Source: Promethearchaeota archaeon
Lineage (GTDB): Archaea; Asgardarchaeota; Lokiarchaeia; Helarchaeales; RDOG01
DNA: 64,000 nt
NCBI GenBank assembly: GCA_011365055.1
Contig: RDOG01000008.1
Location: forward strand, 62,001-126,000
Direction of reading: 5' to 3'
Shown in pieces: positions 33,417 through 36,776 of the stretch. Positions within the stretch are counted from its first letter, which is position 1. Each line of letters starts with the position of its first letter. The notes beneath the pieces were generated by a model. It was not told where the DNA came from. It was given only the letters and a program-made list of their open reading frames with translations, and ran no database searches. The position numbers and the translations under genes were made by a program.

Positions 33417-33647
33417 CTAAACTACAGATTCAACACTTATGTCATTACCTAATTCTTGTTTTAGATAACGTTCAACACCGTGTTTTAAAGTCATGGCTGC
33501 GTGCGCACACCCATGACAGGCACCCATTAATCTGACAACAACTTTATTGCCTGTCACGTTAATCAATTCAATACCACCGCCATCAGCTTGAAGTGAAGGA
33601 CGTATTTTGTCTAAAACTTTTTCTACTTCTTCGGTTGTAACTGCCAT
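33417..33647 (-). CDS. NifU C-terminal-domain protein, Fe-S cluster scaffold
   Basis: The whole 76-residue protein is one NifU/NfuA domain: a helix, IRPSLQADGGGIEL and the cluster-binding pair C44/C47 in GACHGCAHA, followed by an amphipathic helix. Such proteins carry a [4Fe-4S] cluster for delivery to apo-enzymes, in keeping with the Fe-S-rich genes around it. The AAGGTGAA ribosome-binding site lies six bases upstream of the ATG. Confidence 0.9.
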   Translation of the reverse strand: MAVTTEEVEKVLDKIRPSLQADGGGIELINVTGNKVVVRLMGACHGCAHAAMTLKHGVERYLKQELGNDISVESVV

Positions 33648-33770
33648 AAATTTTTCACCTTCATTATTCTTTTATATAAAAAATGAAAATTGGTATATTT
33701 AACTTTTCAACTTTTTTTAAAGTAACTAAATTTTAAGATTTGAAGTTATTTTACTTTGTTTAAAATTGGT

Positions 33771-34014
33771 GGGAAAAACGTGCTGTAAAAATTAGGATAT
33801 AACTCTTCGTAAGAGTAAGGAGGGAGGGATTAATTATTAAAGGGAGAAAAATCTGCAGCACGTCTTCCCGTTCGGTTATTTTGGTAAACACCTTCAAGTT
33901 TATAGGTGAGATGCGCTTCAAGAGGGAGGGGAGGGATTTATTATTTGAGGGGATTTATCATAAAATGGGAGGGATTAAAAAAGTAGGGCGCATCTCTTCA
34001 CCCAACTTGAAGGT
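33771..34014 (+). ncRNA. candidate structured RNA: two hairpins with G-rich loops
   Basis: No gene fits this stretch, which is conspicuously G-rich on the plus strand. Hairpin A pairs 33771-33775 with 33865-33869 and 33778-33785 (acgtgctg) with 33856-33863 (cagcacgt), and encloses a small perfect hairpin (actctt-cgt-aagagt, 33802-33816). Hairpin B pairs 33890-33900 with 34004-34014, 33905-33909 with 33998-34002, and 33910-33916 with 33988-33994: 23 base pairs in all. Both loops contain ggagggagggatt/ggaggggagggattt followed by an A/T patch and agggg. A pyrimidine tract at 34015-34038 could terminate a plus-strand transcript. RNA family unknown; strand is inferred. Confidence 0.55.
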
Positions 34015-34044
34015 ATTTTCTTTTCTCTTATTTCCTCCTAGTAA

Positions 34045-34212
34045 CTATTCTGTATTCATTTTATATTGTAATACATAAGTGTTATCGCCGTTTTTCTTAA
34101 GTTCTAATTCAAACTCTGAATCATCGGACAAGTCCATCATTTTTGCGATGGTCTTGGGAATTAATAGGTACGTGGACTGTTTTATTCGAATGCAACGAAC
34201 ATTTAATGGCAT
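34045..34212 (-). CDS. AbrB/SpoVT-like 55-residue DNA-binding protein
   Basis: The ATG at 34212 opens a frame of 55 codons beginning MPLNVRCIRIKQSTYLLIPK. The N-terminal half follows the swapped-hairpin (AbrB) fold: a strand, a loop, the strand-turn TYLLIPKTIAK, then DLSDDSEFELEL with its acidic middle. Proteins of this kind are dimeric regulators or the antitoxins of toxin-antitoxin pairs. No toxin gene adjoins it. It ends 31 bases before hairpin B of the candidate RNA. A TATA-like atatac lies about 26 bases upstream of the ATG, suggesting a leaderless transcript. Confidence 0.7.
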   Translation of the reverse strand: MPLNVRCIRIKQSTYLLIPKTIAKMMDLSDDSEFELELKKNGDNTYVLQYKMNTE

Positions 34213-34363
34213 ATTTCTTTCCCCGAGTAATTTATCATTAATTGTATATTCTTAAGATTTCTAGATTTTCTTTTAATAAAAACCTTATGAATTATTTAGT
34301 CTGTAAATGCAATTTTTTGTGGAAAAAAAAATTCAAATATACATATTTGTGCATAAGAAAAGG

Positions 34364-35638
34364 TTATTTTTTTGAGGTATCAGGTTTTGCAAATTTTAGC
34401 GAACACACGCCCAACGAAACAATTTTTTTATCTTCATCTAAAGTCCAACCATAAACATTGAATAATCCTTCATAATAGCGAGCTAAACATCCCATGAGAT
34501 CTTCATCAATCATGGTTCCAATAAGCCTAAAATTTAATTCTTCAGAATCCTCAGTAAGTTCTATTTTAAATCCAGTAATATCAGCAAAATAAACATAATT
34601 TAATAAACTTTTATATTCTTCAACTGGAAAAGAAGAGAATTGGATTTTCACCAAATTTGCATCTTTAACACCTTCTTCATACCATTTATTGACCCAATTT
34701 TTATCTTTAAACAACTTTATTTTAACACATTCAAAATAGATGCTTGCAGGTACAAGGATCATATCAATTTCTTTAACTACTTGAAAAAGCACATATTCTG
34801 ATACTATATCTTCTATACTTTGATCGAAATTTTCTTCGATTGAGATACAATTTTTCAAAACGTGTTCGTTCACGTAATTGAATAAAGTCATGTTCCTTTT
34901 CTTTGAAATTTCAAGTAAGGTTTCTGCTATTTCTTTATCTACGGCTAAAGTTTTTCGATCTATTGAATGATCATCTTCTCCAGGTTCAAAAAAATTAGAA
35001 GGTTCTGTCATTCTCATTTTAATTATATTCAATAATTCTTTTGTTTTTGGTTCAAATGATATGTTAATATGAGATGTCTCAAAGGTTTGAGAAGTTTTCT
35101 TAAATCCCAAATGTTCAAAAATAGCAATGAACGTTTGAGAATAATAATTTAAAAACGCATCTGGGAAATCCATATTTTTTTTTATGACATTTAATTGATG
35201 AGTATAATCATCATTTAATCTGAATTTTACTTCAATATCTCTCCAAAAGGCGTTTTTAGCAAATTTAATGAGAATATCAATCCGTTCATTAATACTAGGA
35301 TATTTTGCTTCACAATATCGAATCATCCATTTACCAAATTCATAAAATTTGTTTTGAAATTCTTCTATATAATCTTCCACACCACTTAAAGCGCTATAAA
35401 ATAAATTACTTGGAGCTAATACAAATCCCAATTTTTTTGCAAGCTCAAAGGATTCTATCTTTTCAATAATATTACTTAAATCCGTATTTAATTCATTTTC
35501 TGCCCTGATAGCTTGTAACATGCACTGGTTCAAAAAGTTGTAAAGTGTTATACCCCTTTCTTTAGTAGATTCACTTATTTTAACCGCTAATGCCTTCGCT
35601 ACGGCTAAGGTCTTTCGTTCTTTTGACAAAATCCCCAC
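34364..35638 (-). CDS. uncharacterised protein with two ~200-residue internal repeats
   Basis: The 424 residues fall into two related halves. Each opens with a similar 35-residue helical segment, RKTLAVAKALAVKI...GITLYNFLNQ at the start and RKTLAVDKEIAETL...NMTLFNYVNE near 235. A shared pattern follows: FVLAPSN/MILVPAS, then a long helical part and a C-terminal beta region. The Leu-Ala-Val-x-Lys ... Thr-Leu-x-Asn opening slightly resembles ribbon-helix-helix DNA-binding segments. No family or function is recognised. The protein is cytoplasmic by sequence. Confidence 0.75.
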   Translation of the reverse strand: MGILSKERKTLAVAKALAVKISESTKERGITLYNFLNQCMLQAIRAENELNTDLSNIIEKIESFELAKKLGFVLAPSNLFYSALSGVEDYIEEFQNKFYEFGKWMIRYCEAKYPSINERIDILIKFAKNAFWRDIEVKFRLNDDYTHQLNVIKKNMDFPDAFLNYYSQTFIAIFEHLGFKKTSQTFETSHINISFEPKTKELLNIIKMRMTEPSNFFEPGEDDHSIDRKTLAVDKEIAETLLEISKKRNMTLFNYVNEHVLKNCISIEENFDQSIEDIVSEYVLFQVVKEIDMILVPASIYFECVKIKLFKDKNWVNKWYEEGVKDANLVKIQFSSFPVEEYKSLLNYVYFADITGFKIELTEDSEELNFRLIGTMIDEDLMGCLARYYEGLFNVYGWTLDEDKKIVSLGVCSLKFAKPDTSKK

Positions 35639-35717: not shown

Positions 35718-36674
35718 TTATTTCAAGCCCATTTGGGTTATTATGAAATCTAAAGATGATATGCCATAAATTTCCTCTTCATTTAATATAATTTTTTGAG
35801 GACTATATTTTTCAAATTTATCTTTAATTATATCGTAATTTTTTTGTTGAGTTTTCTTTTTCCTTTCGCAGAATTTGCATTCATGATTTGTTGTATCTGG
35901 GAGGAATTTATTCACATATATTCCAGCAACTTGAATATCGTATATATTCAATTGTTTTATTAATCGTTCAGTTTCTAGTATTGAAAGCATTTCTGGGATC
36001 ATTACAGCAATAAATAAAGTAGATTCTTTATTTGATAATCTTTCTTTAGTTGATATTGCCCATTCCTTTATTTTTTCCAGGAATTCAGCAGGATCAGCTT
36101 TCTTTTCCTCAACTTTTTTCCTTCTGAATGCACTTGTAAATTTATCAATAACGCTGCCCAATTTATGTCTAATATTAATTAATCTCATGCTAGTACCCTT
36201 CATAAATTCTGGAAGATTTAATAAATTAAGAGTATGACCAGTAGGAGCAGTATCAAGAATAACGATATCGAACATGATACCGTCTTTTCCACCAACGAAC
36301 GTCCTATTTACATCTAAAATACCAAATCCTTCACTCATTCCGGGAACTAATTCTAATGAATCACCCAAAATTAACTTTAATTCTGGTTGGTTTTCAATAT
36401 GAACTTCATAATCTTTTGCAACTTGCTCTGTATTTATTTCGAGCATGTATAAAAATTCGTTGACTTTTACAAGTTTTCCAGGATTAGGCTCTACTTGATA
36501 AATATCACTAACAGAATGGGCAGGATCAGTCGACATTATTAAAGTCTTTTTCTTTTTTCGGGAAACGTATAAAGCCGTTGCAGAGGCTAAGGTAGTTTTT
36601 CCAACACCACCTTTTCCTCCAAAAATAATAAGTTTTTTCCCATTTTCGTTAATGAAATCAGTTAAATGCTTCAA
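35718..36674 (-). CDS. Get3/ArsA-family ATPase with CxxC (tail-anchored targeting type)
   Basis: The deviant P-loop GKGGVGKTT with its signature Lys is intact, as are switch I STDPAHSVSD and switch II DTAPTGHT. Near the C-terminus is CKFC, the zinc-binding pair that holds the Get3 homodimer. This set is diagnostic of Get3-type ATPases, which carry tail-anchored membrane proteins; ArsA arsenite pumps usually lack the CxxC. I start it at TTG 36674 (MKHLTDFINENGKKL) behind GGAG, because the frame further upstream to 36755 encodes an unlikely hydrophobic stretch and runs into the divergent gene. The protein is about 318 residues. A second, divergent family member lies at 45846. Confidence 0.88.
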   Translation of the reverse strand: MKHLTDFINENGKKLIIFGGKGGVGKTTLASATALYVSRKKKKTLIMSTDPAHSVSDIYQVEPNPGKLVKVNEFLYMLEINTEQVAKDYEVHIENQPELKLILGDSLELVPGMSEGFGILDVNRTFVGGKDGIMFDIVILDTAPTGHTLNLLNLPEFMKGTSMRLINIRHKLGSVIDKFTSAFRRKKVEEKKADPAEFLEKIKEWAISTKERLSNKESTLFIAVMIPEMLSILETERLIKQLNIYDIQVAGIYVNKFLPDTTNHECKFCERKKKTQQKNYDIIKDKFEKYSPQKIILNEEEIYGISSLDFIITQMGLK

Positions 36675-36776
36675 TTCTTTCTCTCCAGTAAAATAAATCC
36701 TAAGATAAAATAATTTAAAAATTTCATAAACAATATCTTTAATATTAAAGTACAAATAAAGCGAGTTATATTTTAA

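What the first reader, a model, noticed from the sequence alone, without database searches (positions are those of the whole stretch)
33771..34014. Two-hairpin, G-rich candidate structured RNA
In otherwise very AT-rich DNA this 244-base stretch has two long hairpins in tandem: A with 13 pairs around a nested perfect hairpin, B with 23 pairs in three segments. Their loops are related to each other (ggagggagggatta... and ggaggggagggattt..., each followed by an A/T patch and a further G run). The B loop has four runs of three or more G, so a G-quadruplex is conceivable. A pyrimidine tract follows. No protein frame explains it. High local GC with strong pairing in an AT-rich genome is the usual mark of structural RNA. 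The paired elements with matching loops suggest an internally duplicated RNA of unknown class, or less likely a small mobile element with inverted ends.
Basis: seen in the sequence. Interest (0 to 1): 0.75.

Follow-up and report, generated by a model that had tools for sequence, protein, structure and literature searches.

The report
Conserved two-hairpin RNA in Asgard archaea
A pair of long hairpins between genes of an Asgard archaeon belongs to an apparently uncatalogued family, also found in a distant relative, whose stems keep pairing although their letters change while their loops keep their letters, which points to a working RNA of unknown role.

Summary
One relative (G083) has a homologous A-B pair beside the same neighbour genes, plus two single copies: six hairpins in all. 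A covariance model built from two G083 A hairpins alone ranks the other four copies first in 97 kb; the weakest, window A, is barely above chance. On that model-fitted alignment 91.9% of stem cells pair and 12 of 15 pairs change on both sides (0 of 500 shuffles). Loops align above shuffles in all six comparisons; stem arms mostly do not. So pairing is selected in the stems and sequence in the loops. No Rfam family fits, and searches of the other 226 Asgard genomes held gave no convincing copy, at limited sensitivity. The transcribed strand is unresolved and there is no transcript evidence. Most likely it is a non-coding RNA that shows repeated G-rich (or, on the other strand, C-rich) motifs in open loops to capture a protein or RNA. 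CsrA and Ro/TROVE were not found in the two genomes tested. A quadruplex is possible only in B loops. A ribosome decoy is the boldest reading left open.

The parts
33771..33869 (.). Hairpin A: arms 33771-33786 and 33855-33869, loop about 70 nt; strand of the RNA not resolved
   Evidence: third best non-training hit of model R1 (16.6 bits; next, a chance hit, 15.5)
33820..33851 (+). Conserved part of the A loop, GAGGGAGGGATTAATTATTAAAGGGAGAAAAA (three GGG runs, as in both G083 A copies)
33802..33816 (+). Small perfect hairpin ACTCTT..AAGAGT inside the A loop; absent from the G083 A copies
33886..34018 (.). Hairpin B: arms 33886-33916 and 33988-34018, three paired segments, loop 71 nt
   Evidence: R1 hit 19.9 bits
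33922..33981 (+). Conserved part of the B loop with G-rich units (GGGAGGGATT 33929-33938, GAGGGGATT 33947-33955, GGGAGGGATT 33967-33976)
34013..34040 (+). Pyrimidine tract after B on the G-rich strand, terminator-like for that strand
34045..34212 (-). Small AbrB/MazE-like frame (55 aa, below the Pfam cut-off) between B and the RHH-like gene; no such frame seen at the G083 locus
34364..35638 (-). 424-aa two-domain protein (RHH-like start in each half), conserved neighbour
35718..36755 (-). ArsA/GET3-type ATPase, conserved neighbour
33417..33647 (-). NifU-like protein gene on the other side of the element

Best explanation
The two hairpins are members of one vertically inherited family of non-coding structured RNA in a Helarchaeota-like Asgard lineage. 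A long, sequence-free stem holds open a loop of about 55-75 nt that carries two (A type) to four (B type) copies of a short motif: GAGGG(G)ATT on one strand, AATCCCCTC/CCCTCCC on the other. The stem works as a scaffold (shown: pairing kept while letters change). The loop motif is the active part (shown: sequence kept). The RNA probably works by multivalent capture, as a decoy or sponge of a protein, or of an RNA, that recognises the motif (inferred). Transcription, its strand and the partner are not shown.
For: Homologous A-then-B pair in G083 C164 in the same order and orientation, beside the same RHH-like and ArsA genes. Two single copies in G083: A-type on C159 (about 340 bases from the contig end) and B-type on C110. 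Model R1, trained only on G083 A1 and A2 and run without filters over 97,395 bases chosen to hold the copies, ranks B1 26.3, B2 20.0, WB 19.9 and WA 16.6 bits next, all with the C-rich strand forward. Covariation score 0.818 against shuffles 0.278 +/- 0.055; 12 of 15 pairs with changes on both sides; 0 of 500 shuffles reach either; slid controls pair 37-44%. Loop-to-loop alignments z 2.5 to 12.7 in 6 of 6 pairs; 5' arms z -0.4 to 1.3 and 3' arms z -1.0 to 2.2 in the five pairs other than A1-A2. No Rfam match at gathering score in the window. On the C-rich strand, holding the loop open costs nothing in 3 of 3 B hairpins.
Against: Only six copies in two genomes. Searches of 227 Asgard genomes with R1, R2 and R3 gave no convincing further copy; they use stricter filters and score 16-22 candidates per genome, and R1 did not even list G083's own B copies at E<=0.1. 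WA's 16.6 bits lie close to the best chance hit, 15.5, and the 0.25 cut was set after seeing that list. A1 and A2 do share stem sequence (z 5.1 and 3.2). In A hairpins the open loop costs 2.2-6.6 kcal/mol on the C strand, and folding z-scores are weak for A1 on either strand (-0.6, -1.4). No RNA-seq. Strand evidence conflicts: wobble pairs 9 (C) to 5 (G), p 0.42; 6 to 1 on the fitted alignment, which is biased; two or more U4 tracts within 60 nt downstream in 2 of 6 (G) and 0 of 6 (C), background about 0.2; the promoter motif search gave no positioned motif. A cruciform or single-stranded DNA hairpin would show the same covariation. The A10 alignment is fitted to the structure it is counted on.
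Confidence: 0.45

Rival explanations
1. Ribosome-directed RNA on the G-rich strand: the loop units GGAGG..GATT imitate Shine-Dalgarno sequences and pair with the 16S tail, so the RNA acts as a 30S decoy or docks on the ribosome.
For: G083 16S ends GGATCACCTCCT. All six G-strand loops pair with that tail at -11.1 to -14.0 kcal/mol; composition-matched shuffles do as well in 4, 15, 18, 7, 15 and 12 of 200 (WA, WB, A1, A2, B1, B2). Both syntenic loci have at least two U4 tracts within 60 nt after B on this strand. Ribosome-associated non-coding sRNAs are known in Haloferax volcanii (PMC12482152, abstract and outline seen).
Against: The copies are related, so the six tests are not independent. The conserved unit GAGGGGATT differs from the perfect complement GAGGTGAT. 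Long SD matches are rare upstream of genes in the window (3 of 46 with six or more). On this strand the loop tends to misfold with the stem.
Confidence: 0.15
2. C-rich-loop antisense RNA on the other strand: open CCCUCC loops bind SD-like G-rich starts of mRNAs, as C-rich loops of some Firmicutes sRNAs do (recalled).
For: Opening the C-strand loop costs nothing in 3 of 3 B folds; wobble pairs lean to this strand. Two of 20 GAGGGGATT sites of G083 outside the family lie just upstream of an ATG (L144, L159).
Against: C loops pair with an SD consensus no better than shuffles (28 to 73 of 200 as good). GAGGGGATT is little enriched in G083 (24 sites, 4 of them in the family, against 13 for the reversed control).
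Confidence: 0.13
3. G-quadruplex RNA or DNA: the G-rich loop folds as a quadruplex on top of the stem.
For: B loops (WB, B1, B2) have 6, 4 and 5 G-runs; with quadruplexes allowed, 2 of 3 (WB, B2) put one in the best fold, with the stem formed.
Against: A loops have only three G-runs in 3 of 3 copies and none forms one; B1 does not either; 25 of 100 shuffles of the B2 loop form one too. The conserved ATT flanks are not needed by a quadruplex.
Confidence: 0.1
4. DNA element: cruciform or repeat site bound by a DNA-binding protein such as the neighbouring RHH-like protein, perhaps with the ArsA-type ATPase as in partition systems (recalled).
For: RHH-like halves and a P-loop ATPase are conserved neighbours in both genomes; the B loop units are direct repeats spaced 17 and 21 bp.
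Against: The contigs of the two single G083 copies (C110, C159) gave no RHH-like hit. R1 finds no such hairpin in the stretches taken around the RHH-like genes on C15 and C52, and R3 none in G001. The ATPase scores far better as GET3/ArsA (232 bits) than as ParA (32 bits). Operators rarely need 13-33 bp covarying stems (general knowledge).
Confidence: 0.12
5. Remnants of a small mobile element with inverted ends.
For: Several dispersed intergenic copies in G083; A1 and A2 are alike throughout (92% mean column identity). B2 has AAAAAAG just outside both ends.
Against: B1 and B2 of the same genome share no stem sequence; no flanking duplication seen by eye in the other copies; the A-B pair is syntenic between distant genomes.
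Confidence: 0.03

Closest known systems
CsrB/RsmZ sponge RNAs (recalled)
   Same: Hairpins that present repeated GGA-type motifs in loops for multivalent capture
   Different: CsrA not found in either genome tested; loops are 55-75 nt, not short; motif is GAGGGGATT
Y RNAs (PMC4726728, passages read)
   Same: Hairpin of about 90-150 nt, three-nucleotide bulge in the stem in 3 of 6 copies (A1, A2, WB), large pyrimidine-rich loop if the C strand is the RNA
   Different: Conservation is reversed (loop kept, stem free); no TROVE/Ro60 gene found in G083 or G001; no conserved Ro-site stem sequence
C-rich-loop sRNAs of Firmicutes such as RNAIII/RsaE/RoxS (recalled; PMC5419742 seen only in a search listing)
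   Same: Unpaired CCUCC-type loops if the C strand is transcribed
   Different: Archaeal; SD pairing no better than shuffles; far longer loops with repeats

Membership tests
Any Rfam 15 family | Covariance-model score at gathering threshold | tested here: not met
   0 matches over 64 kb; permissive searches of 33650-34250 and L037:3760-4950 gave four matches, all far below gathering scores, E 0.72-4.7
Y RNA / Ro RNP | Ro60-type TROVE protein encoded in the genome | tested here: not met
   0 of 2 genomes (G083, G001; completeness not told), control rings in 1 of 14
Y RNA / Ro RNP | Conserved lower-stem sequence with bulged C | tested here: not met
   stem letters are near shuffles between copies except A1-A2
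CsrB/RsmZ sponge | CsrA encoded in the genome | tested here: not met
   0 of 2 genomes, control rings in 3 of 14
CsrB/RsmZ sponge | Repeated GGA motifs in hairpin loops | tested here: met
   G strand: each of the six loops has several (read)
Anti-SD C-rich-loop sRNA | Loop pairs with SD better than chance | tested here: not met
   28-73 of 200 shuffles as good
SD-mimic ribosome decoy | Loop pairs with 16S tail better than chance | tested here: inconclusive
   4-18 of 200 shuffles as good per copy, copies related
G-quadruplex RNA | Four or more G-runs in every member | tested here: not met
   B 3 of 3, A 0 of 3
Structured non-coding RNA | Compensatory changes in stems across homologues | tested here: met
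   12 of 15 pairs, 0 of 500 shuffles; alignment fitted to the model
Structured non-coding RNA | Transcribed | not testable with these tools
   no RNA-seq at hand
MITE-like mobile element | Shared terminal inverted repeats among copies of one genome | tested here: inconclusive
   B1 against B2 arms near shuffles (z 1.3 and 0.5), but A1 against A2 alike (z 5.1 and 3.2)

The most novel reading that the evidence does not exclude
A new Asgard RNA class whose stem-held loops carry repeated Shine-Dalgarno-like units that dock on the 16S tail, making it a ribosome-targeting decoy RNA, with the A-B pair as the ancestral locus and single copies as later offshoots.
Probability: 0.13. Interest if true: 0.85.

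Novelty: new variant of a known kind. Interest (0 to 1): 0.6.

Why it matters
Three searches of the held paper library (listings only) showed no described RNA of this kind in Asgard archaea, which are held to be the closest archaeal relatives of eukaryotes (general knowledge). A family with clear covariation and a conserved loop code gives a concrete, small target for transcriptomics and pull-downs, and its inside-out conservation (loop kept, stem free) says where the partner must bind.

Tried and rejected
DNA search of 227 Asgard genomes with the raw element (three candidates scored per genome): 19 matches in 15 of 227 genomes at E<=0.01. I printed all 19; only the one in G083 C164 sits in a family hairpin, judged by eye.

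Pattern search: 25 rows in 14 of 227 genomes; five rows, four copies, in G083. Arm test: 31 other distinct matches (16 Asgard, 15 viral). The best were 21.0 (L046, p 0.025) and 19.0 (L129, p 0.055); neither was pursued. Under this strict test four of the six family copies score 32-36 (0 of 200 shuffles) but WA scores 19 (p 0.055) and A2 18 (p 0.365). Of the 21 viral loci, 15 passed the script's slightly different pattern; six were not tested.

Model searches of 227 genomes: R1 17 genomes at E<=0.1 (19 rows, 17 outside G083, 9 of these read); R2 51 genomes (scores fall from 43.7 to 19.3 bits; rows below not read except two places already printed); R3 9 genomes at E<=0.05 (12 rows, 8 outside G083, all 8 read, none with the repeated C-rich loop). 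The G083 copies that R1 (both A), R2 (both B) and R3 (all four) return were training members. G089 L072 (36.7 bits with R1) overlaps the start of a 517-aa frame that looks like a transposase to me and lacks the CCC units. G078 L074 (29.7 bits) has CCCC and CCCTCC but a weak stem; undecided.

Strand tests by wobble, terminator tracts and a home-made promoter motif were inconclusive. The promoter motif had no fixed distance to start codons; its mean best score upstream of the stems was 5.2 (G) and 2.8 (C) against 3.9 +/- 2.2 at random. K-turn and C/D-box readings of the bulge were rejected by eye. Complement to 16S beyond the tail: no longer than shuffles. RHH-like protein in viral contigs: no match to its patterns.

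Full report
What is in the window. The stretch 33771-34018 lies between a NifU-like gene (minus strand) and a small AbrB/MazE-like frame (minus strand), followed by a 424-aa protein and an ArsA/GET3 ATPase. Two hairpins are present as described: A (arms 33771-33786/33855-33869) and B (33886-33916/33988-34018). B is the strongest large-loop hairpin of the window and exceeds 12 Markov resamples; A alone does not. The organism is an Asgard archaeon near Helarchaeota: a Helarchaeota MAG encodes the closest named homologue of the 424-aa protein (54% over 89%), and the best genome hit of a hydrogenase-like neighbour is Helarchaeota LW55_61 (44%).

A homologous locus. I searched the 227 genomes held for that phylum. 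The 424-aa family occurs in 2 of 227 at E<=1e-5 (G001 and G083). Beside it in G083 C164 lie an A-like and a B-like hairpin in the same order and orientation. The ATPases of the two loci are 52% identical, so the lineages are well separated. A and B are 16 bases apart in the window and 208 in G083. In a sensitive DNA comparison of the locus the strongest matches are in genes; the A loop shows weakly (E 0.049 with A1, 0.007 with A2) and the B loop not at all, though the genome search found the B loop at E 2.6e-4. G083 carries two further copies, an A on C159 near a contig end and a B on C110. R3 finds none in G001.

One family, selected twice over. A covariance model made only from the two G083 A copies was run without filters over the window and three G083 stretches (97,395 bases, both strands). 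Below its two training copies it ranks B1 (26.3 bits), B2 (20.0), window B (19.9) and window A (16.6); the next hit, is 15.5 bits, so window A alone is barely above chance and rests on its place beside B and on its loop. A and B are one family. On the alignment of these six, 91.9% of cells pair, 12 of 15 pairs have changes on both sides, and the covariation score is 0.818 against 0.278 +/- 0.055 in shuffles; slid controls pair 37-44%. That alignment is fitted to the model and leans to the structure; but the arms of A, B and B1 were first seen as inverted repeats. Compared pairwise, loops align with z 2.5 to 12.7 in six of six pairs; stem arms lie near shuffles except between A1 and A2 (5.1, 3.2) and in the 3' arm of WB against B1 (2.2). 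Pairing is conserved in the stem and letters in the loop.

Loop code. On the G-rich strand, A loops carry GAGGGAGGGA(A/T)TAATT and AAGGGAGAAA (WA AAAGGGAGAAA); B loops carry three to four GAGGG(G)ATT-like units separated by A/T stretches. A 3-nt bulge sits in the stem of three of six copies (A1, A2, WB); B1 can be drawn with one too. The perfect hairpin nested in window A is not conserved.

Strand. Unresolved. Opening the loop on the C-rich strand costs nothing in the three B copies and 2.2-6.6 kcal/mol in the A copies; on the G-rich strand it costs 8.0, 8.7 and 0.6 in B and 2.0-3.8 in A. C-strand folding z-scores beat the G strand's in all six, but G-rich loops pair promiscuously with U, which favours that outcome anyway. 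Wobble pairs lean to C (9 to 5, p 0.42; 6 to 1 on the fitted alignment). On the G-rich strand both syntenic loci have at least two U4 tracts within 60 nt after B, a pattern that PMC8716108 (passages read) reports for strong archaeal terminators, also with a Lokiarchaeota aCPSF1; the background rate is about 0.2 per 60 nt. The promoter motif search failed to find a positioned motif.

Function. The inside-out conservation says that the loop is read by something. CsrA and TROVE proteins were not found in the two genomes tested, so the CsrB and Ro/Y routes are not supported as memberships, though a sponge with another partner remains the best guess. Pairing of G-strand loops with the 16S tail is better than most shuffles (4 to 18 of 200 as good); pairing of C-strand loops with an SD consensus is not (28 to 73 of 200). 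Long SD matches are rare in the window's genes (3 of 46). Quadruplexes are possible in B but not A. A DNA role with the RHH-like neighbour cannot be excluded; the contigs of the two single copies gave no RHH-like hit.

Breadth. Models R1, R2 and R3 over 227 genomes give only G083 clearly (R3: 99.7 to 69.0 bits, next 32.2), and those G083 copies were in the training sets. The searches use stricter filters and score 16-22 candidates per genome; R1 missed G083's own B copies. Diverged copies could be missed. Among the viral contigs tested none is a copy.

Literature. Searches (0 papers; 2 papers, on group I introns and IS200/IS605 RNAs, listing only; 15 of 5,199 listed) showed nothing on such an RNA in Asgard archaea. 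The library lacks most subscription journals and holds no bioRxiv preprints.

Verdict. Its strand, transcription and partner are open.

Noticed in passing
window 34364-35638 (-); L037:5004-10100: A 424-aa family with two halves, each with an RHH-like start (weak RHH_3 hit, below cut-off, in a single-domain G001 relative) plus a domain whose better natural structure matches are H-NOX and TRAPP Bet3-type (Foldseek E about 0.005-0.05, none at 0.001 or better, designed proteins rank first; model pLDDT 69.8, RHH parts poor). Three copies lie around an ArsA ATPase in G083; it occurs in 2 of 227 Asgard genomes.
   Followed up: partly
window 34045-34212 (-): A 55-aa AbrB/MazE-like frame (17.7 bits, below Pfam cut-off), too short for the ORF list.
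   Followed up: no
window 33660-33689 and L068:484-513: A 90% identical 30-base stretch on opposite strands, upstream of the NifU gene and of a gene whose translation looks like an enolase-superfamily enzyme to me; perhaps the promoter form of this lineage.
   Followed up: no
L074:1501-1580 (G078): Stretch outside any listed frame with CCCC and CCCTCC units (29.7 bits with R1) but a weak stem; possible distant relative.
   Followed up: partly
L144 and L159 (G083): Two genes have GAGGGGATTTGG, a near match to the loop unit, just upstream of their ATG; possible targets of a C-strand RNA.
   Followed up: no
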